Origin: an uncultured Selenomonadaceae bacterium
Lineage (GTDB): Bacteria > Bacillota > Negativicutes > Selenomonadales > Selenomonadaceae
Reading direction: 5' to 3'
Assembly: GCA_905234045.1 (NCBI GenBank)
Contig: CAJOGS010000005.1
Location: 1-35,473, forward strand
Length of the DNA stretch: 35,473 bases
The notes below the pieces were generated by a model that saw nothing but the letters and a program-made list of their open reading frames with translations, did no database searches and was not told the DNA's origin. Shown here piece after piece: positions 15,123-25,136 of this stretch. The position numbers and the translations under genes are program-made. Position 1 is the stretch's first letter, and the number at the start of each line of letters is the position of its first letter.

Positions 15123-15164
15123 CTACCGAAAACTACCCAACTAACAACTAACCACTAGCCACTA
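15123..15164. repeat. CTA array at the stop of the OppF-type ATPase gene
   Basis: On the minus strand TAG recurs from the stop codon (15164-15162) in 7-bp steps (CTA at 15162, 15155, 15148, 15141), then at 15133 and 15123. It faces the 14587 array across the convergent intergenic region. Confidence 0.8.
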
Positions 15165-16109
15165 AACAGGATAATGACAGGCGATAAAATGATTTGGCTC
15201 GATTTCTTGAAAATCGGGCTTTTTTTGTTGGCAAAGTTCCTGACAATGCAAGCAACGATTTTGAAACGGGCAACCTTTGGGAATATCAAGCGGGCTGGGA
15301 ATATCGCCCGGCAAAATTTCAATATACTGATTTTTTTCTTGCTCGGTAGAAAAAACCGCTTTTAAAAGTGCTTGCGTATATGGATGCCGTGCGCCGTCCA
15401 ATTTATCGCCGTCCAGTTGCTCCATCATATTTCCCAAATACATTACGCAAATTCGGTGAGCAAACATATTCACCAACGCCATATCATGACAGATGAAAAT
15501 GTAGGTTATGCCCTTTTCCTGCTGAAGTTTTACCAAAAGTTTTATAATCGTGTCTTGAACAGAAACATCAAGCGCAGAAGTTGCCTCATCGCAGGCGATA
15601 ATTTCAGGCTGAAGTGCCAACGCCCGCGCTATTGCAACTCTTTGACGTTGCCCGCCGCTCATATTGTGCGGATAACGATTCACAAAGTCCGGCGGTAAAT
15701 CTACCTGCGCCAAAAGTTCCCGCGCTTTATTTTCCACTTCAGATTTTGAAATTAAATCAAAATTTAAAAGCGGCTCGCAGATAATATCTTTGATTTTCAT
15801 TTTTGGATTAAAAGCGGCGGTAGGGTCTTGAAAAACCATTTGAATATTTCTGTAATTTTGGCGTTTGTCTTCGCCGCTAAGTTGCGTTATATCCACGTCG
15901 TGAAAAATAATTTTGCCGCTTGTCGTTTTTTGCATATTCATAATAGTTTTTAACAGCGTAGTTTTTCCGCAACCACTTTCGCCGACAATGGCAACAGTTT
16001 CGCCGCGTCTGACATTGAAAGAAATATCATCACACGCGGTTAAAAATCTGCCGCCGCTTACAGGAAATTTTTTTGTCAAATGTTCAACGCGCAAAATTAT
16101 TTCAGACAT
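15162..16109 (-). CDS. ABC transporter ATP-binding protein, DppF/NikE type
   Basis: This 315-residue ATPase has Walker A GESGCGKT (residues 43-50), a Q-loop QDPTAAFNPKM, the signature MSGGQRQ (about 150-156) and Walker B IIACDE (170-175). A C-terminal oligopeptide-transporter domain (HPYTQALLKAVF) ends in a cysteine cluster, CPFQNRCLHCQELC. It powers a peptide/nickel-class importer on the inner membrane face. GGAGG lies 8 nt before ATG 16109, which overlaps the end of the partner ATPase by 8 nt. The TAG stop heads a CTA/TAG array. Confidence 0.9.
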   Translation of the reverse strand: MSEIILRVEHLTKKFPVSGGRFLTACDDISFNVRRGETVAIVGESGCGKTTLLKTIMNMQKTTSGKIIFHDVDITQLSGEDKRQNYRNIQMVFQDPTAAFNPKMKIKDIICEPLLNFDLISKSEVENKARELLAQVDLPPDFVNRYPHNMSGGQRQRVAIARALALQPEIIACDEATSALDVSVQDTIIKLLVKLQQEKGITYIFICHDMALVNMFAHRICVMYLGNMMEQLDGDKLDGARHPYTQALLKAVFSTEQEKNQYIEILPGDIPSPLDIPKGCPFQNRCLHCQELCQQKKPDFQEIEPNHFIACHYPV

Positions 16110-16893
16110 AGCGACGCCCTCCAATTTCCGGCACTGACTCCAATAAACTTTTCGTGTATTCGGCTTGAGGATTATTTAAAACATCGGCAGTTTTGCCGTA
16201 TTCGACAACTTTGCCTTGCGACATTACCATTAAATTATCTGAAAGGTAACTTGCAACGCCCAAATTGTGAGTAACCATAATCATTGCCGCGCCCGTGCCG
16301 CGTGTGATAAACATTAATTCGCCGACAATTTGCGCCTGTGTCGTAACGTCAAGCGCGCTTGTCGGTTCATCTGCCAATAATAATTTCGGCTGAAAAGTTA
16401 TCGCCATTGCAATTCCGACACGTTGACGCATACCGCCTGAAAGTTCAAATGTATAGGAGTTCATAATATTTTCGGGATTCGGTAAATTCATCAGTACCAA
16501 TTTTTCAATCGCCATATCATACGCGGCTTTTTTATCCAAATCGCTGTGAACTTGAATATATTCTACAAATTGTTTGCCGATCGTGTGTACAGGGTTCATC
16601 ATGTTGCCGCTGTCTTGAAAAATCATTGAAATATCTTTGCCGCGCAATTTCCGCCAGCCGTCGTTATCGAGTGCGCGCAGATTTTTATTTTCAAAAATCA
16701 TTTCGCCTTTTGAAACTTTGCCGCCGCCCGGTAAAACATTCAAAATCGCACGAATTACAGTAGTTTTGCCGCTACCGCTTTCGCCGACTATTGTTAAAAT
16801 TTCGCCTTCATTGAGTTCAAAATTTACGCCTTGAACCGTCGGCGCGGTACTTTTTGCGTATGAAATTTCTAAATCTGAAACTTTTAACAGCAT
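16102..16893 (-). CDS. ABC transporter ATP-binding protein, NikD/DppD type
   Basis: This 263-residue ATPase has Walker A GESGSGKT (37-44), the signature LSGGMRQ (151-157) and Walker B LLLADE (171-176). It is short and lacks the long C-terminal domain of DppD/OppD, as NikD does, which slightly favours a nickel/cobalt-type system. It starts 7 nt after the stop of the SHMT-like gene and overlaps the next ATPase by 8 nt, so the three are translationally coupled. The cognate permeases and binding protein are encoded farther upstream in the same direction. Confidence 0.9.
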   Translation of the reverse strand: MLLKVSDLEISYAKSTAPTVQGVNFELNEGEILTIVGESGSGKTTVIRAILNVLPGGGKVSKGEMIFENKNLRALDNDGWRKLRGKDISMIFQDSGNMMNPVHTIGKQFVEYIQVHSDLDKKAAYDMAIEKLVLMNLPNPENIMNSYTFELSGGMRQRVGIAMAITFQPKLLLADEPTSALDVTTQAQIVGELMFITRGTGAAMIMVTHNLGVASYLSDNLMVMSQGKVVEYGKTADVLNNPQAEYTKSLLESVPEIGGRRYV

Positions 16894-16899
16894 ATAAAA

Positions 16900-18186
16900 T
16901 CACATTCCATAGATCATACTTTTCATAATTAATTCGGCGTCGCGTTCGCGGATAATTTCTTCAGCCGGCAACCAGTCTTCAGAAAAGAGAGGCAAGCCTT
17001 CAATAATTTCTTTGACAACTTGTTCAACTTTTTTTATCGCCCTTGAATCTTGCGGCGATTTCAAAAATTCGCCCAATGTTGCGCCGACTCTAAATAAATC
17101 TTTTTCATTAAGTGCGCGGGTTGTCGGGTCTAAACTCGACAATCTCAAAATCGGATATGAAATATTTTCGTCGGAAGTCATAAGCGTTTCGGCTTTTACC
17201 AAAAGTCCCGCCTGTTCCAATTTTGCCGCAACTGATTTATTGTCAACATTTTCAGGCATTTTCGGCAATACCAAATGATTTTCAGTTTTCTTCCAGTAAG
17301 TTTCAATTCCCGCCGAATTTAAACCGTTTTCAAGGGCGCGGGCGTTGTCCATAACCGCCTGCGCGTATTCTTTAAATTCAGGACAAGAAACCTCGTTAAA
17401 AGTTATTGCCAACGCCGCCATAACATTTTTTTTCAGTGAGGCGTGTCCTGTTTCAATAACAGCTTTTTCCAACAAGTCGGCAAATTTTTTTCTGCATAAA
17501 ATAATGCCGCTTTGCGGACCGTGCAAGCCGTCACTTCCCGCAAAAGTTAAAATATCTGCATAAGGCACGGGCGAAGGGATTTTACCGGCGGCAACAAGTC
17601 CCGCGTTTTGTCCCAAATCTACCCAAAGAATTGCGCCGGATTCTTCCGCCATTTTTTGCATTTTCAAATAATCGATATTGTGCGGGTAATTCGTCGGCGA
17701 AAAAATTATCAACTTTGGTCTATTTTTCAACGCCAAATATTTTACATTTTCATAATTTAATCTCATATCGTGCGGATCAATCGCAAATTTTATGAAATTA
17801 TATTTCATCTGTTCGCCGGTGCAATGTTCTTTTTTGCGAAGGTTGAACGACAAAATAGTATCGCCTGTTTGAGCCAACGCCAATAAAACGACGCGCGATG
17901 CCGCAACAGGGTTACCCAATCTCAAAATTGCGTGTTCGGCGTTGAAAAGTTTGCAAGCGCGTTTAACTGCAAGCTGTTCAATTCGGCTGTAATGTTCCAG
18001 TGCGTTATGTCCGATGAAATCGTTGCCCAGCGCACCGCCTTTTAAATATTGAGACAACGGCGATGCCGCGCTGTCAGTCGGAATTAATGACAGCGTGGAA
18101 AGCTGTCTGTCCAGTGAAAATTTTAGAACTTCGCACAATTCGGGGTCAAATTTTTGCAGTTGCTTGAATAATTTATTGGTTGCCAT
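16900..18186 (-). CDS. Serine hydroxymethyltransferase-like protein lacking the PLP lysine
   Basis: This 428-residue protein is homologous to GlyA over its whole length: RQLSTLSLIPTDSAASPLSQ at the N-terminus, IEQLAVKRACKLFNAEHAIL, LWVDLGQNAGLVAAGKIPSP and EFKEYAQAVMDNARALENGL. In GlyA the PLP-binding motif is TTTTHKTLxGPRGG; here it is TFAGSDGLHGPQSG, so the Schiff-base lysine is Asp219 (codon GAC at 17532-17530). The PLP-stacking His near 121, Asp190 and a substrate-type Arg348 remain, but the His after VD is Gln193 and the YYGG loop is altered. Normal SHMT catalysis is unlikely. AAAGGAG precedes the ATG. It lies 6 nt upstream of the transporter ATPase genes. Confidence 0.85.
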   Translation of the reverse strand: MATNKLFKQLQKFDPELCEVLKFSLDRQLSTLSLIPTDSAASPLSQYLKGGALGNDFIGHNALEHYSRIEQLAVKRACKLFNAEHAILRLGNPVAASRVVLLALAQTGDTILSFNLRKKEHCTGEQMKYNFIKFAIDPHDMRLNYENVKYLALKNRPKLIIFSPTNYPHNIDYLKMQKMAEESGAILWVDLGQNAGLVAAGKIPSPVPYADILTFAGSDGLHGPQSGIILCRKKFADLLEKAVIETGHASLKKNVMAALAITFNEVSCPEFKEYAQAVMDNARALENGLNSAGIETYWKKTENHLVLPKMPENVDNKSVAAKLEQAGLLVKAETLMTSDENISYPILRLSSLDPTTRALNEKDLFRVGATLGEFLKSPQDSRAIKKVEQVVKEIIEGLPLFSEDWLPAEEIIRERDAELIMKSMIYGM

Positions 18187-18206
18187 TTAGTTAGCTCCTT
18201 TCGGTG

Positions 18207-18248
18207 TAGTGGCGTAGTTTCGTAGTCGGGTAGTGTGATAGTGATTAG
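18207..18248. repeat. 8-bp TAG array upstream of the SHMT-like gene
   Basis: TAG occurs at 18207, 18215, 18223, 18231 and 18239 (exact 8-bp phase) and at 18246. The last is the first triplet of the element end TAGGTGCTGTTGTAAAAA. Confidence 0.8.
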
Positions 18249-18578
18249 GTGCTGTTGTAAAAATAAACAATGCTACAACTAAAAAATTTTGAGAGTTGGA
18301 ATTTCCTAACTTTTAGCAAATTTCTTTCTGTTGGACTACCCGCGCCCCAGCCCGTCTCTGTTTTTGCCTGTTATTAAAATTTGTGTAAAAAGTGGGACGC
18401 GGCTGAACGGCTGACTTGTTACCTCGCTAAACGCGAAAAACCTTGCAAAGGCGACGAGTAGGAGCGTTTGCTGGCAGTAGCGTCTTTCTTTTTGGTACCT
18501 TTTTCTTTGACAAGACAAAGAAAAAGTACATTTAATTAGAAAAAAATTAAACAAGAAATATTTTACAAACAGCCCCAA
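18246..18578. repeat. 330-bp inverted-end repeat element, copy 2
   Basis: The core at about 18270-18490 matches the element at 2205-2532 nearly end to end, including ACCCGCGCCCCAGCCCGTCT and TAACGCGAAAAACCTTGCAA-type blocks. The ends are a different variant (GGTGCTGTTGTAAA left; GGGGCTGTTTGTAAA on the other strand at right). It contains the TTTTTCTTTG-ACAAGA-CAAAGAAAAA hairpin near 18500-18530. It is flanked by a TAG array on the left and a CTA array on the right. Confidence 0.7.
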
Positions 18579-18626
18579 GCAAAGAAAAGTAAATTTAATA
18601 AATAAAAAAGCAATTAAGTAATATGA

Positions 18627-18656
18627 CTACCGCACTATCCCACTATCACACTACTA
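18627..18656. repeat. 8-bp CTA array at the GntP gene stop
   Basis: On the minus strand the stop TAG (18656-18654) is followed at once by a second TAG (CTA 18651), then by TAG every 8 bp (18643, 18635, 18627). It closes the intergenic region that the 18207 array opens. Confidence 0.8.
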
Positions 18657-20084
18657 CGCAATTCCTGTCAGCATATAAAACACGATGCACAGGAACGGTA
18701 TAAAAAATTTTATTCCCAGCAAAACAATAATATCAAAATAAGAGTCTTTGTGAGTAAGTCCGCAAATCGCCAAAAGTGTAACGAGTGCGCCGCAATGTGG
18801 CACGGGGTCAATACCGACTGACGCAATAGAAATTATTCTGTGCAACGCCTCCAGCGAAATTCCTTGAGCAGTCGCCATTTGTGCCCATTGTTCGCCGAGC
18901 ATTGAAAGTGCGATTGTCAAGCCGCCTGACGCCGAGCCGGTAATTCCGCACATTATATTTGTCGTGACAACCGCCGCAACCAAAGGTCCTGCACTTTCCG
19001 CAATTACTGTTAAAATCGCTTTTATTGGGAAAAATCCCGGCATTGTAACCATAACGCTGCCAAATGCAAATCCCGACGCTACATTTAAAACTGCCGCGCA
19101 ACTTGACGCCGCGCCAAAATTTATTGTTTCAAGTAAATTTTCTCTTTTGGAAGTGTAACGCTTGCGCCCGATATAAGCCGCCGCAAAACTGCTGATAATC
19201 AAGGCAACGCTGATTGACCAAATTGCTTGAACTTTGCTGACATTCGGAGTTATTAAACTTAAACCGAACGGGGCGAACGGCTCCAAACTGCTTTGGCTCC
19301 AATGAAAACCCCATGCCCAGTTGAAAGGATTACTCAAAATAATATTTATCACGATAACCATTAAAAGCGGAATTAGTGATGCTTGCCAACTCGGCAAAGT
19401 TCTGTCGCGTTGCTGTTTCTGTGCAATTTCGCCGCCGTAACCTTCGCCTTTGGCTTTTAAAGATTTTGCGCGGAATGAAAGCCAGCCCATTGCAGAGCCT
19501 AAAAATAAAACTGTGGCAAATAAACCGATTCCGACGCCCGCCCAAGTCGAAGTTCCGAAATATGACGACGGTATAATATTTTGAATTTGCGGAGTGCCGG
19601 GCAATGCGACCATTGCAAATGAAAAAATTCCTATCCACATTGTGGCAGGCAATAATTTTTTCGGTATGTCAGCTTTTCTGAAAATTTCCGCGCCGAACGG
19701 GTACATTACGAACGCTACAACAAAGACGCTCAAACCGCCGTAAGTCAAGGCGGCACAGCCTAAAATTACTGCCAATAATGCGCGTTGTTCGCCGAGCAAT
19801 GAAATTATTTTTCCTGCAATGGCGGACGCCAAGCCGCCTTTTTCCATTAATCTTGCGAATACCGCGCCGAATAAAAATACAGGGTAATAAGTTTTGGTGT
19901 ATTCAGCCAGCCGAGTCATGTAAAGTTCGGTATACGTCGGCATTATTCCAAATTCGCTGAGAATTGCTGCGATAATTGCAAAGAATGGCGCAATTAAAAT
20001 TATCGACCAGCCGCGATACGCCGCGAACATTAAGCCGATTATTGCTACGCCTATACAAAATGTATCCAAATATAAGACCACCAA
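18654..20084 (-). CDS. GntP-family permease
   Basis: This 476-residue hydrophobic protein with about 12-14 helices resembles gluconate/organic-anion:H+ symporters. LTYGGLSVFVVAFVMYPFGA, FSFAMVALPGTPQIQNIIPS and MCGITGSASGGLTIALSMLG are typical of the family, as is the late ASVGIDPVPHCGALVTLL. The substrate is unknown. The start is uncertain: TTG 20084, the adjacent GTG, or TTG 20069 after GGTGG are all possible, and no strong ribosome site is seen. It lies between the binding protein and the SHMT-like gene but is separated from both by repeat-filled gaps. Confidence 0.82.
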   Translation of the reverse strand: MVVLYLDTFCIGVAIIGLMFAAYRGWSIILIAPFFAIIAAILSEFGIMPTYTELYMTRLAEYTKTYYPVFLFGAVFARLMEKGGLASAIAGKIISLLGEQRALLAVILGCAALTYGGLSVFVVAFVMYPFGAEIFRKADIPKKLLPATMWIGIFSFAMVALPGTPQIQNIIPSSYFGTSTWAGVGIGLFATVLFLGSAMGWLSFRAKSLKAKGEGYGGEIAQKQQRDRTLPSWQASLIPLLMVIVINIILSNPFNWAWGFHWSQSSLEPFAPFGLSLITPNVSKVQAIWSISVALIISSFAAAYIGRKRYTSKRENLLETINFGAASSCAAVLNVASGFAFGSVMVTMPGFFPIKAILTVIAESAGPLVAAVVTTNIMCGITGSASGGLTIALSMLGEQWAQMATAQGISLEALHRIISIASVGIDPVPHCGALVTLLAICGLTHKDSYFDIIVLLGIKFFIPFLCIVFYMLTGIA

Positions 20085-20556: not shown

Positions 20557-20570
20557 GTCTCTAGCCCCTA
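20554..20570. repeat. 7-bp CTA array at the binding-protein stop
   Basis: CTA occurs at 20568 (the TAG stop on the minus strand), 20561 and 20554, in exact 7-bp phase. The third triplet is the first triplet of the adjoining element end. The unit content matches the array after the secreted protein at 14587. Confidence 0.75.
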
Positions 20571-22136
20571 TTTAGCAGGTTTAATCAAATTCGTAATCCA
20601 ATAGTAATCCGACGGGTACATTTTAACGCCGTCAACATATTTTGCATTGATGATATTTGTTTGAGGATAACCGAAGAATAAAGCCGCGCCGTCATTCAAA
20701 AGAATCTGTTGCAGTTCAATAATTAAATCGCGGCGTTTATCTTTGTCAAATTCCATTGAAAGTTGCTCAAGTTTTGCATCGTATTCGGGATTTGAATAAC
20801 CGCTGCCGTTTTGTTGGTTACTGCCGTCAACATTTGTTTGCCAGTACCAGCGCAAGAAAATTTCGGGGTCGCCTGTGTTCGCCGTCGTAATGTTTGAAAT
20901 AATCAAGTCGTATTCGCCTTTTATTCCCATGCTGTCAATCAAATTATAATCGACGGTGTTAATTTTTATGTCAAAGCCGAGTTTCTTTAAATCAGATTGA
21001 ACAGCCTCAGCATAAAGCGGCAATTCTGCGCGAGAATTATAAACTACAAAGTCAAGCGTTAAATTTTTGCCGTCTTTATCTAAAATTCCGTCACCGTCAG
21101 AATCTTTCCAGCCCGCCTCGTCAAGAAGTTTTTTGGCGCGTTCGGTATTGTAAGCATTTGGATCAGTCAACTTGTCAAAGCCGTAATCGAGGGACGGCGG
21201 CACGGGAGATTTACCGGGTATAAATGTACCTTTCAGCAAAATATTATTGTAAGTTTCTCTGTCGCAACCGCAAATTAACGCGGCACGAACTTTATCATCA
21301 CTCAAAATGTGGTCGGGATTTTGATTCAATCTTGCAAGTACAACGCGCAATGATGAAATTTCATCAACGTTGAATTTGTCATTATTTTTGAAAATATCAA
21401 TATCGCCCGCCGCAATATTAACGGCAACGTCAACATCGCCGGCTTGCAGAGCCATTGCGCGGGTATTCGGGTCATCAATCGAAGGAATTTCTACAGTTTG
21501 ATATGGAACTTCGCCGCCCCAGTAATTTTCATTTTTCTTCATAACGGCGCGTTCTTTAACGAAACTTTCAACAGTGTAAGGACCTGTACAAATTGGACCT
21601 TGTTTTGAAAAATCTCTGTCTTTTTCTGCGGCAACGTCAACGATTATGAAAAGCGGATCAGCCAAATAACCGGGCATACCGGGCAACGGCTTTTTAGTTT
21701 GGATAATTAAATTTTGTCCGTCCGCCGTGATTGATTCGTATTCAAAGAAAGTTTCAGCGCGGTTATTTTTTGCAAAGGCGCGCTCAATGGATTGTTTAAC
21801 GGCGTCGGCGGTAAGTGCGTCGCCGTTGGAAAATTTCACGTTGTCACGAATTTTGAAAGTCCACGTTAAATGATCGTCGCTGACATTCCAACTTTCGGCA
21901 AGCCATGGCTGAATGTTCATTTTTTCATCAAATTTGGTTAAACATTCGCCGAGACCGTAGCGCATAACTACCCAGCCGAAAAAGTTTTGCGTAGGTTCAA
22001 GCGTATCTGCAAAATTTGTAACGCCGACTTTTAAAACATTTGGGGCGCCGCCTTTTGCGTTATCGCCGCCGCAACCTGTAAATAACATTCCTGTTGCCGC
22101 TACTGCCGCCAAAAGTTTTTTCCATTTAAAAAGCAT
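20568..22136 (-). CDS. Extracellular solute-binding lipoprotein, family 5 (peptide/nickel type)
   Basis: This 522-residue lipoprotein (signal ending LFTGC, lipid Cys22) has the full SBP family 5 fold: LGECLTKFDEKMNIQPWLAE, SWNVSDDHLTWTFKIRDNVK, FSNGDALTADAVKQSIERA, TGPYTVESFVK and a DSDGDGILDKDGK loop. It would capture a peptide, metal or metal-chelate for the NikB/NikC-like permeases encoded at 23365-25136. GGAAG precedes the ATG. It is separated from those permeases by an opposing HsdR-N gene. The specificity cannot be told from the sequence. The TAG stop heads a heptamer array. Confidence 0.88.
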   Translation of the reverse strand: MLFKWKKLLAAVAATGMLFTGCGGDNAKGGAPNVLKVGVTNFADTLEPTQNFFGWVVMRYGLGECLTKFDEKMNIQPWLAESWNVSDDHLTWTFKIRDNVKFSNGDALTADAVKQSIERAFAKNNRAETFFEYESITADGQNLIIQTKKPLPGMPGYLADPLFIIVDVAAEKDRDFSKQGPICTGPYTVESFVKERAVMKKNENYWGGEVPYQTVEIPSIDDPNTRAMALQAGDVDVAVNIAAGDIDIFKNNDKFNVDEISSLRVVLARLNQNPDHILSDDKVRAALICGCDRETYNNILLKGTFIPGKSPVPPSLDYGFDKLTDPNAYNTERAKKLLDEAGWKDSDGDGILDKDGKNLTLDFVVYNSRAELPLYAEAVQSDLKKLGFDIKINTVDYNLIDSMGIKGEYDLIISNITTANTGDPEIFLRWYWQTNVDGSNQQNGSGYSNPEYDAKLEQLSMEFDKDKRRDLIIELQQILLNDGAALFFGYPQTNIINAKYVDGVKMYPSDYYWITNLIKPAK

Positions 22137-22198: not shown

Positions 22199-23368
22199 AT
22201 GAGTCAAGATTTTATGAAATCGAAATTGCCGAAAGTTTATAAAAAAGCAGGACAAGACGCATATTTAGACCCTATCAGACAGAAATTAATTTATGTTACG
22301 CCTGAAGAAACTGTTCGCCAGCATTTAATTTCTTATCTGATTGAAAATTTGCAAGTGCCGAAAAATTTAATCAGCGTCGAAGAACCTTTATCACATTACG
22401 AAATTAAAACACGCGATAGAGCCGATATAATCATTAATGCTTACGATAAAACGCAAGAAAATTTTTATCCTGTAGCCGTTATAGAGTGCAAAGCTCCTGA
22501 AATTTTTCTTGACGAAAAGGCTTTTAATCAAGTTGCAAATTATGCAGATAAACTTTGTTGCAATTACTGTTGGTTGACGAACGGCGCGGATAATTTTTGT
22601 TATTGCTTCGATGAAGGTAAAAATGATTATGTAAAAATTGAAGAATTTCCGAAATATCCTGAACTTTTGGAAGGTGAATATTTGCCTGCACCTGTCGAAG
22701 ATCCGCCGCCACGAATTGAATTTGACGAGTTGGAAAAATTTTATTTGAATTATGTTGACGAAGGCAGCATTGGCGAAAATACGCCTAAAAAATTTGCCGT
22801 ACCAATGGTAAATTTTTTTGAATGCTTGCTTGACGTTAGTCATAAACTGCCGAATCAACAGTATAAAATTTTTGAACTCGTTGAAGATTATGGAATCAGG
22901 CTTTTATCTGTTGGTAATAGTAGCGGCGGAAAATTTGACAGTGCATATCGTTCATTCATAATCAATTACAACGGAGACGAAAAATTTGTTTCTATAAGCA
23001 TTTCAAGTTACTGCACTGAAAAAAATCCAACTCTGAAAACTGTAATAAATGTGGCTATTGACAGAGAAACTGATTCTCACCACTCTTTGGAATGTGTTGT
23101 TGACAATAATTTTGAAGTTATCGGCAATAAAATAAAATTTTATCACAACGGCAGAATTACAAAAGGTCAAGGGGCTTTAAAAGTTGACGACTTGAGAAAA
23201 CTGGTTTCAGAAAAATATCCTCCAATAATCGACGGCAAAAAATTTTATCTTGGAACATTAACGCATAATCGCCTTTGGTATTTAGATGATCCTGAAGTTA
23301 TGCAAGTCATTGAAAATTTAATTTCATATGCTTTAATTCGTGACGACTACAGAGAAATTTGCAGTTAA
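22199..23368 (+). CDS. Orphan HsdR N-terminal-domain protein (PD-(D/E)xK nuclease fold)
   Basis: This 389-residue protein has residues 33-160 matching the N-terminal domain of type I restriction R subunits: TPEETVRQHLISYLIENLQV, TRDRADIIIN (Asp76) and AVIECKAP (Glu96-x-Lys98). These supply the D...ExK nuclease triad. Helicase motor domains are absent, and no hsdM or hsdS is nearby. The C-terminal 230 residues are not recognised. GAGGAG precedes the ATG. It is divergent from the binding-protein gene (62 bp) and its TAA stop overlaps that of the permease gene by 3 nt. A defence or DNA-repair role is possible but unproven. Confidence 0.75.
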   Translation: MSQDFMKSKLPKVYKKAGQDAYLDPIRQKLIYVTPEETVRQHLISYLIENLQVPKNLISVEEPLSHYEIKTRDRADIIINAYDKTQENFYPVAVIECKAPEIFLDEKAFNQVANYADKLCCNYCWLTNGADNFCYCFDEGKNDYVKIEEFPKYPELLEGEYLPAPVEDPPPRIEFDELEKFYLNYVDEGSIGENTPKKFAVPMVNFFECLLDVSHKLPNQQYKIFELVEDYGIRLLSVGNSSGGKFDSAYRSFIINYNGDEKFVSISISSYCTEKNPTLKTVINVAIDRETDSHHSLECVVDNNFEVIGNKIKFYHNGRITKGQGALKVDDLRKLVSEKYPPIIDGKKFYLGTLTHNRLWYLDDPEVMQVIENLISYALIRDDYREICS

Positions 23369-24183
23369 TTTTCTTGTCGCGGGTCTAAAACATCGCGCAG
23401 GGCATCGCCCCACAAATTAAATATCGCTACTACAATAAAAATTGCCATACCTGGATAAATCATCAGCCACGGCGCAGTTTGTATATATTGGCGTCCTTCG
23501 TTTAACATTAAGCCCCATTCAGGCGTCGGCGGTTGTGCGCCGAATCCCAAAAACGACAACCCCGCAATTTCCATCATCATTGTCCCGATATCCATTGCGC
23601 CCGTTATTACTACCATTGGCAAAACATTCGGCAGTATGTGCCGACGCAAAATATTTATTGTCTTCGTGCCGTTGACTTGTGCCGCAACTATAAAATCATT
23701 GTTACGCAATTTTATTACCAAACTGCGAACGAGCCGCGCATATTTCGCCCAGCCGACTATTAAAAGCGCAATGATTGTATTTGCGATTGAGCCGCCCAAA
23801 ATTCCGGCTATCGCTATTGCCAAAACGACGCCGGGAAATGATAACATCATGTCTGCAAGCCGCATTAAAAACATTTCGATTTTGCCGCCGAAATATCCCG
23901 ATGCAATTCCTACCACACAGCCGACAATCGCCAACAAAATTACAAGGCATATCGTCATAAACAGTGAAACTTGAGTACCTGCGATTATTCTTGAAAAAGT
24001 GTCGCGCCCCAATTTGTCAGTGCCGAGTAAATGCTCTGCCGACGGCGTTTGTAAAACATTTCTCATATTGCCGTCATACGGGTCTTGCGGCGCAAGGTAC
24101 GGCGCAAATATTGCCACGAACAATACCATAATTACCAGCAACGTATAAAATGAAAATAATTTGTGACTTTTTATAAATTCCAT
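23365..24183 (-). CDS. ABC transporter permease, NikC/DppC type
   Basis: This 272-residue protein has five to six helices, the N-terminal DPYDGNMRNVLQTPSAEHLL-GTDKLGRD segment of DppC/NikC proteins, and the EAA loop GLSFLGFGAQPPTPEWGLML that docks with the ATPase. The ATG overlaps the stop of the NikB-type gene (TAATG). It is the second gene after the cobalamin riboswitch. It ends convergently with the HsdR-N gene. Confidence 0.9.
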   Translation of the reverse strand: MEFIKSHKLFSFYTLLVIMVLFVAIFAPYLAPQDPYDGNMRNVLQTPSAEHLLGTDKLGRDTFSRIIAGTQVSLFMTICLVILLAIVGCVVGIASGYFGGKIEMFLMRLADMMLSFPGVVLAIAIAGILGGSIANTIIALLIVGWAKYARLVRSLVIKLRNNDFIVAAQVNGTKTINILRRHILPNVLPMVVITGAMDIGTMMMEIAGLSFLGFGAQPPTPEWGLMLNEGRQYIQTAPWLMIYPGMAIFIVVAIFNLWGDALRDVLDPRQEN

Positions 24184-25136
24184 TACTGCGCCGCTCCTTT
24201 TCTAAGTTTCGGATCTAAATAAGTGTAGGACAAATCTACCAAAAAATTTATAAACATGTAGGCAATGGCTATCCAAAGTACAAATCCTTCAATCAGCGGA
24301 TAATCTCTCATCATTATTGCGCGTACCGCCATATTTCCAATGCCCGGCCATGAAAAAACCATTTCAATAACTGCCACGCCGCCCAATAACCAGCCGATTG
24401 ACATTCCCAGTAATGTTATCAGCGGCAAAACTGCATTTGGCAAAATGTGTCGCCAAAGTATTCTGCTTTCACTCAAGCCGCGCGCCCGCGCTCCAATTAC
24501 GTAATCTTGATGCAGTTCGTCCAAAATTACCGTGCGAACTTGCCGTACATATTTTGTTGATTGATATATTGCCAAAGTTACCGCCGGCAAAATTACGCCG
24601 TTTAAAGTTACTGTTGAACTTGCTATCGGGAACCAGCCTAATTTTAAACCGAAAATGTACAGTAAAATTAATCCAAGCCAAAAATTCGGCATTGAAACGC
24701 CGATGAATGAAAAAAATCTAACCAAATAATCTTGCCACTTGTTTTGATTGACTGCTGACCAAATCCCCAGCGGCAATGATATTATCAGTACAAAAATTAT
24801 AGTTGTGAACGCCAAAAGTAACGTGCCGACGAATCCTTCAGAAAGTTTTTCAAATACAGGTTTTTTCGCCGAGTATGACATTCCCATATCGCCGTGCAAA
24901 ATTCCGACTACCCAGTTACCGTATTGCACTATGAAAGGTTTATCAAGTCCCAATTCTTCACGTGTTTTTTGTAAAGTTTCTTCAGAAACTATTGTGTCTG
25001 CAGACTCCAAAAGCATTGCAACGGGGTCGCCCGGGGCAAGGTACGCAAGGCAAAATGTTAAAAAACTTACGCCAATTAATGTTATCAGCATTTGCAGAAA
25101 TCTGTTTGCCAAACGATTCAATTTTTTCACCACCAA
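24183..25136 (-). CDS. ABC transporter permease, NikB/DppB type
   Basis: This 317-residue inner membrane permease has six helices. LTLIGVSFLTFCLAYLAPGD-like opening, ALQxxDYVIGARARGLSESR-type EAA region (here HQDYVIGARARGLSESRILW) and AVIEMVFSWPGIGNMAVRAI are characteristic. The start is TTG 25136 with AGGAA 7 nt upstream; the GTG next to it is possible. That ribosome site lies in a hairpin (25144-25162). The adenosylcobalamin riboswitch upstream indicates repression by B12, so cobalt or a cobalt-related compound is a reasonable substrate guess. Confidence 0.9.
   Translation of the reverse strand: MVVKKLNRLANRFLQMLITLIGVSFLTFCLAYLAPGDPVAMLLESADTIVSEETLQKTREELGLDKPFIVQYGNWVVGILHGDMGMSYSAKKPVFEKLSEGFVGTLLLAFTTIIFVLIISLPLGIWSAVNQNKWQDYLVRFFSFIGVSMPNFWLGLILLYIFGLKLGWFPIASSTVTLNGVILPAVTLAIYQSTKYVRQVRTVILDELHQDYVIGARARGLSESRILWRHILPNAVLPLITLLGMSIGWLLGGVAVIEMVFSWPGIGNMAVRAIMMRDYPLIEGFVLWIAIAYMFINFLVDLSYTYLDPKLRKGAAQ

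What the first reader, a model, noticed from the sequence alone, without database searches (positions are those of the whole stretch)
16900..18186. SHMT homologue with aspartate in place of the PLP lysine, coupled to metal/peptide transporter ATPases
The TTTTHKT motif is replaced by TFAGSDG, giving Asp219 instead of the Schiff-base lysine; the His stacking near the VD motif is Gln193. The rest of the fold, including VD, LVAAG and PVPYAD, is well kept and the frame is intact. A conserved but lysine-less SHMT suggests a new role, for example binding a PLP-like or metal-bound ligand, or regulating transport. The gene lies 6 nt upstream of the ATPase pair.
Basis: partly seen in the sequence, partly recalled or inferred. 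Interest (0 to 1): 0.75.

Follow-up and report, generated by a model that had tools for sequence, protein, structure and literature searches.

The report
Lysine-less SHMT paralogue beside organic-anion carriers
Rumen and other Selenomonadaceae bacteria carry, beside their normal serine hydroxymethyltransferase, one or more conserved look-alike proteins that have lost the lysine needed for the vitamin-B6 chemistry and sit next to organic-acid membrane transporters, so they are very probably a former enzyme re-used for another, unknown, transport-linked job.

Summary
The gene at 16900-18186(-) is an intact 428-aa SHMT homologue with Asp219 at the Schiff-base lysine position (Bacillus Lys226). 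The genome has a separate, complete GlyA. The protein is not a one-off. It belongs to one clade (73 sequences aligned; SH-aLRT 100) found in 16 of 30 genera of one family (Selenomonadaceae), often in two copies per genome. No member was found elsewhere in the class and phylum genomes sampled. None of the 73 has the lysine (67 Asp), no lysine lies nearby, and dN/dS is 0.04-0.19, so this is a maintained pseudo-SHMT family. Folate, phosphate-loop and most ring-contact residues have gone too. A new Arg117-Lys118 pair is invariant, with Arg89 and Arg98 nearly so; Asp190 and the carboxylate-binding Arg348 are kept.

The ABC-ATPase link is local (2 of 73 loci). The conserved partner is a secondary carrier directly upstream in 63 of 73 loci: a CitMHS-like carrier, DASS anion symporters, or (twice) GPH. 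Lysine-bearing sister paralogues sit near glutamate/dicarboxylate symporters.

I infer, unproven, a PLP-independent organic-anion-binding protein serving the adjacent carrier. A PLP-independent enzyme is the main rival. The closest described analogues are the inactive Plasmodium PfSHMTm and the lysine-less LCB1 subunit.

The parts
16900..18186 (-). Lysine-less SHMT paralogue (pseudo-SHMT), 428 aa; Asp219 at the Schiff-base position (codon at about 17530-17532), Gln193 for bsHis200, Asp190 and Arg348 kept, family-specific Arg89, Arg98, Arg117, Lys118 and C-terminal PLFSEDWLP
18654..20084 (-). Secondary carrier (476 aa, TTG start as called), weakly CitMHS-like; the conserved upstream partner, 66-84% identical in the loci of this subclade; 468 nt gap here, usually 0-300 nt elsewhere
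16102..16893 (-). NikD/OppD-type ABC ATPase, 6 nt downstream; locus-specific neighbour
15162..16124 (-). OppF/DppF-type ABC ATPase; locus-specific neighbour
20568..22136 (-). SBP family 5 (NikA/Opp5A-like) substrate-binding protein of the surrounding Opp/Nik operon
23365..24183 (-). Opp2C (nickel/peptide) permease of the same ABC operon
   Evidence: 340 bits, over the curated cut-off
24183..25136 (-). Opp2B permease of the same ABC operon
   Evidence: 395 bits, over the curated cut-off

Best explanation
The gene encodes a member of a Selenomonadaceae-specific family of pseudo-SHMTs. SHOWN: an SHMT-derived protein lacking the PLP lysine forms one clade, is kept under purifying selection beside a normal GlyA, and is mostly encoded directly behind a secondary carrier, usually of an organic-anion type. 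INFERRED: it no longer runs PLP chemistry. Its old active-site cleft, which keeps the carboxylate-binding Arg348 and Asp190 and has gained an invariant Arg117-Lys118 pair and Arg89/Arg98, binds a carboxylate-rich metabolite. Through that binding the cytosolic protein serves the adjacent carrier, as a substrate sensor, modulator or acceptor of the transported anion. The ABC ATPases downstream in this window are incidental neighbours.
For: Lys absent in 73/73 (67 Asp, 1 Asn, 1 Glu, 1 Gly, 3 gap), no replacement Lys nearby. One clade, SH-aLRT 100 (quick tree). dN/dS 0.036-0.19 in 13 pairs. Normal GlyA in the same genome. Asp190, Arg117, Lys118, Arg348 and Asn254 invariant, Arg89, Arg98 and Trp405 at 96-99%. 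Secondary carrier directly upstream in 63/73: 36 CitMHS-like (ST1), 25 DASS, 2 GPH, plus one with ST1 directly downstream (tested DASS and GPH examples over NCBIfam cut-offs). Lysine-bearing sister paralogues lie near SDF or GltS symporters in 4 of 5 loci. Less related DASS homologues of the same family sit with genes that read by eye as Na+-decarboxylase beta/gamma subunits, which suggests dicarboxylate substrates.
Against: No ligand or interaction has been measured. The carriers are not all related (GPH differs), and close carrier homologues occur without the pseudo-SHMT, so the carrier does not need it. Eight loci show no recognised carrier next to the gene. Asp at the lysine site is 92% conserved, which could mean catalysis. 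The AlphaFold model is poor (pLDDT 60, four-row alignment), so the cleft geometry is unknown.
Confidence: 0.42

Rival explanations
1. PLP-independent enzyme: the cleft, with Asp219, Asp190, Arg117-Lys118 and Arg348, catalyses a reaction (for example lyase, hydrolase or isomerase) on the imported organic acid.
For: Asp at 92% at the old lysine site and further invariant polar residues; co-location with importers of organic anions.
Against: Asp219 is replaced by Asn, Gly or Glu, or falls in a shortened segment, in 6 of 73 that keep the other invariants; no conserved His/Cys/Ser catalytic set is evident beyond Asp190 and the Arg/Lys pair.
Confidence: 0.28
2. PLP-binding protein without a Schiff base: it holds PLP, PMP or a PLP-amino-acid aldimine non-covalently, as a carrier, sensor or half-reaction enzyme.
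For: Asp190 (pyridine-N contact) and mostly His121 kept; K226M and K226Q Bacillus SHMT crystal structures with serine and glycine exist (entries 1yjy and 1yjs listed).
Against: bsHis200->Gln, bsSer172->Val/Thr, the S-G-A phosphate loop->GNxxA, Tyr51, Glu53, Tyr60 and Tyr61 all lost.
Confidence: 0.1
3. Regulatory subunit that pairs with GlyA (or a tandem copy) in a heterodimer, like LCB1/LCB2 of serine palmitoyltransferase or the proposed PfSHMTm/PfSHMTc assembly.
For: Precedents: PMC3014972 for PfSHMTm; SPT heterodimer PMC3794620. Tandem pseudo-SHMT copies in L083 and L088.
Against: The segment that in SHMT completes the partner's active site (bs 51-61) is the most degraded part; gene context points to carriers, not folate genes.
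Confidence: 0.09
4. The Schiff-base lysine has moved: invariant Lys118, just before the stacking-His position, forms the aldimine and the protein is an active PLP enzyme of new specificity.
For: Lys118 and Arg117 are invariant in 73/73 and absent from GlyA and from lysine-bearing paralogues.
Against: Phosphate loop and ring contacts lost; no structure of adequate quality to judge distance.
Confidence: 0.06
5. Decaying duplicate with no function.
For: Several canonical motifs lost; faster change than the partner carriers (37-50% against 65-80% identity).
Against: Open frame in essentially all copies, dN/dS 0.04-0.19, dozens of nearly invariant columns across 16 genera.
Confidence: 0.02

Closest known systems
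Bacterial serine hydroxymethyltransferase GlyA (Pfam PF00464)
   Same: Same homologous domain end to end, about 31% identity to Bacillus SHMT; Asp197 and Arg357 (Bacillus numbering) kept
   Different: No Schiff-base Lys, no Glu53, Tyr51, Tyr60, Tyr61, His200 or Ser172; added invariant Arg-Lys pair and C-terminal PLFSEEWLP; far below the NCBIfam cut-off (222 against 335 bits)
Lysine-bearing divergent SHMT paralogues of other Negativicutes families (L107-L111, STQKTLRGP/STHKTFRGP type)
   Same: Share FDPE-like start, SP after the SEN region, Trp before the VD motif and the PLF-type ending with EW; near acid symporters
   Different: Keep Lys, Glu53, His122, His200; have a DUF3870 gene upstream in 4 of 5
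Plasmodium falciparum PfSHMTm (PMC3014972)
   Same: SHMT paralogue described as lacking most conserved active-site residues and inactive, beside an active SHMT
   Different: Single eukaryotic organellar protein; proposed to assemble with the active isoform; no carrier link
LCB1/SPTLC1 subunit of serine palmitoyltransferase
   Same: PLP fold-type-I subunit lacking the PLP lysine (general knowledge; SPT heterodimer described in PMC3794620)
   Different: Different family; obligate heterodimer with a lysine-bearing subunit and a shared active site

Membership tests
Active serine hydroxymethyltransferase (GlyA) | SHMT domain homology | tested here: met
   PF00464 177 bits over 397/399 positions; top PDB matches all SHMT
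Active serine hydroxymethyltransferase (GlyA) | Schiff-base lysine (bsLys226) | tested here: not met
   Asp219; 0 of 73 clade members have Lys
Active serine hydroxymethyltransferase (GlyA) | Folate/hydroxymethyl residues Glu53, Tyr51, Tyr60, Tyr61 | tested here: not met
   Gly, Phe and gaps at these columns in the window protein
Active serine hydroxymethyltransferase (GlyA) | PLP ring contacts Asp197, His200, Ser172, His122 | tested here: inconclusive
   Asp and the His122 position kept; His200->Gln, Ser172->Thr
Active serine hydroxymethyltransferase (GlyA) | Serine-glycine activity, PLP absorbance | not testable with these tools
   Needs purified protein
Pseudoenzyme (PfSHMTm-like, lysine-less SHMT) | Homologue of an enzyme lacking essential catalytic residues, kept beside the active enzyme | tested here: met
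Pseudoenzyme (PfSHMTm-like, lysine-less SHMT) | Demonstrated lack of activity | not testable with these tools
   Inferred from sequence only
LCB1-type regulatory heterodimer subunit | Keeps the residues that complete the partner's active site; pairs with a lysine-bearing paralogue | tested here: inconclusive
   Partner-side segment bs 51-61 is lost; pairing itself not testable
   Only the window and L039 among 73 loci
Secondary-carrier partner protein | Conserved same-strand adjacency to a secondary carrier | tested here: met
   63 of 73 upstream, 1 downstream

The most novel reading that the evidence does not exclude
A whole SHMT lineage gave up PLP chemistry and became a dedicated organic-anion-binding cytosolic partner (sensor or gate) of secondary carriers, recruited next to at least three carrier families in Selenomonadaceae.
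Probability: 0.35. Interest if true: 0.75.

Novelty: new variant of a known kind. Interest (0 to 1): 0.55.

Why it matters
SHMT is a near-universal one-carbon enzyme, and automatic annotation would probably label these genes as SHMT, which would mislead metabolic models of rumen and other Selenomonadaceae. The clade is a natural experiment in how a PLP fold-type-I enzyme loses its cofactor: a lysine-bearing divergent paralogue exists, copies survive in many genera, and a cultured strain (Selenomonas ruminantium TAM6421, identified by a 100% plasmid match) has two copies, so it is directly testable. If the carrier link is functional, it would be a new type of soluble partner for DASS/CitMHS-type anion carriers.

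Tried and rejected
Tested and dropped: misalignment or a nearby lysine (none); this being the genome's only SHMT (no); pseudogene (dN/dS); general coupling to the ABC ATPases (2 of 73); presence outside the family (300 class and 398 phylum genomes: the next-best hits, at 336-374 bits, are lysine-bearing paralogues or GlyA). A genome-contig scan with the single protein returned only three close relatives, named uncultured Selenomonadaceae. Paper searches found no description of this clade; the library is open-access only. The careful maximum-likelihood tree did not finish; the quick tree is reported. Whether the ABC operon exists uninterrupted in close genomes could not be settled (only 36% identical SBPs, in two of three genomes).

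Full report
OBSERVATION. The ORF at 16900-18186(-) is intact, 428 aa, and matches Pfam SHMT over the full domain (177 bits). NCBIfam's GlyA model gives 222 bits against a cut-off of 335, so it is a clear homologue but not a member of that subfamily. In the alignment with Bacillus SHMT and with the same genome's GlyA, the gap-free motif TTTTHKTLRGP becomes TFAGSDGLHGP; Asp219 stands for the Schiff-base Lys226. Glu53, Tyr51, Tyr60, Tyr61, His200, Ser172 and Arg233 equivalents are also gone. Asp197 (Asp190 here), the His122 position (His121) and Arg357 (Arg348) remain.

NORMAL GLYA IS PRESENT. The genome (332 contigs, 84% complete) holds one further SHMT, on C94 at 575.8 bits, with HKT and the canonical residues.

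A CLADE, NOT A ONE-OFF. In 189 genomes of the family, a profile of the lysine-less proteins separates sharply: full-length members score 544 bits or more, and the next full-length matches (GlyA) 327 or less. Members occur in 16 of 30 genera, with one or two copies in most carrying genomes. In samples of 300 genomes of the class and 398 of the phylum no member lies outside this family. The only intermediate scores come from lysine-bearing paralogues in two other Negativicutes families and one GlyA. Relatives are named uncultured Selenomonadaceae from rumen, sheep and red deer, and G143 is Selenomonas ruminantium subsp. lactilytica TAM6421 by a 100% plasmid match. In 73 aligned members the lysine column reads D 67, N 1, E 1, G 1, gap 3, with no lysine from -8 to +3. 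A quick maximum-likelihood tree makes them one group with SH-aLRT 100. Pairwise dN/dS is 0.036-0.19, so they are under purifying selection.

WHAT IS CONSERVED INSTEAD. Arg117-Lys118 (Ser118/His119 in Bacillus) are invariant in 73/73 and absent from GlyA and from lysine-bearing paralogues. Arg89, Arg98, Asn254, Ser350 and Trp405 are 96-100% conserved and differ from GlyA; Trp405 is shared with the lysine-bearing paralogues. Asp190 and Arg348 are invariant. Asp219 is common but not obligatory. The cleft therefore kept a carboxylate-binding arginine and gained positive charge; that it binds an anion is inference. The AlphaFold model was too poor to place these residues (pLDDT 60), though the nearest structures are all SHMTs.

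ORIGIN. The lysine-bearing paralogues (L107-L111) share the FD-x-E-like start and the C-terminal PLF/EW ending with the lysine-less clade. They keep Lys, Glu53, His122 and His200, already have an altered phosphate loop and Tyr60/Tyr61 replaced, lie near SDF or GltS acid symporters in 4 of 5 loci, and have a DUF3870 gene upstream in 4 of 5. A plausible path is GlyA, then a lysine-bearing acid-linked paralogue, then the lysine-less clade. This is inference: the tree is rooted at its midpoint only.

NEIGHBOURS. The ABC ATPases downstream (NikD/OppD and OppF type) accompany the gene only in the window and in L039, where the carrier plus pseudo-SHMT pair lies inside an Opp/Nik operon. Across 73 loci the gene directly upstream on the same strand is a secondary carrier in 63: 36 homologues of window 18654-20084 (ST1; no Pfam family above cut-off, CitMHS at E 0.018; weak profile similarity to DASS), 25 DASS sodium-coupled anion symporters and 2 GPH symporters. 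In two of these loci a second, tandem pseudo-SHMT copy lies between the carrier and the gene counted. One more locus has ST1 directly downstream (L073). The carriers also occur without the pseudo-SHMT; some DASS relatives there sit beside genes that read by eye as Na+-translocating decarboxylase beta and gamma subunits, which points to dicarboxylates (not profile-tested). The dependency is thus one-way: the pseudo-SHMT follows carriers.

MECHANISM. Best supported: a PLP-independent, anion-binding cytosolic protein serving the carrier (0.42). The main rival is a PLP-independent enzyme acting on the imported acid (0.28). PLP binding without a Schiff base, a GlyA heterodimer, a relocated lysine (Lys118) and decay are less likely. 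None can be settled without protein work.

KNOWN OR NEW. Lysine-less or inactive relatives of PLP enzymes are known: PfSHMTm is described as lacking most active-site residues and inactive (PMC3014972), and serine palmitoyltransferase pairs two related subunits (PMC3794620), of which LCB1 lacks the lysine (general knowledge). I found no description of a bacterial lysine-less SHMT clade, within an open-access library only. Hence a new variant of a known kind.

Noticed in passing
L107:7910-9190, L108:7818-9098, L109:7697-8971, L110:7754-9193, L111:8387-9784: A second divergent SHMT paralogue family that keeps the lysine but has Tyr60/Tyr61 replaced and an altered phosphate loop, with a DUF3870 gene just upstream (4 of 5) and SDF or GltS symporters nearby; possibly an aldolase for a dicarboxylic hydroxy-amino acid.
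   Followed up: partly
window 22199-23368 (+): A 389-aa gene of opposite strand sits between the permease and binding-protein genes of the ABC operon; it looks like a restriction-enzyme-type N-terminal domain protein; absent at this place in L039.
   Followed up: no
window 18187-18653: 467-nt gap between carrier and pseudo-SHMT, unusually long compared with relatives (mostly 0-300 nt), with short repeat-like stretches (tagtgtgatagtgggatagtgcggtagt) after the carrier stop and a similar stretch before the SHMT start.
   Followed up: no
L138, L139, L140, L141, L142: DASS carriers repeatedly arrayed with genes that read as Na+-translocating decarboxylase beta and gamma/biotin-carrier subunits, in tandem duplicates, in Selenomonadaceae without the pseudo-SHMT.
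   Followed up: no
L083:7687-10458, L088:7237-10124, L082:6562-11016: Two diverged pseudo-SHMT copies (about 37-42% to the window protein) in tandem or nearly so behind DASS carriers.
   Followed up: partly
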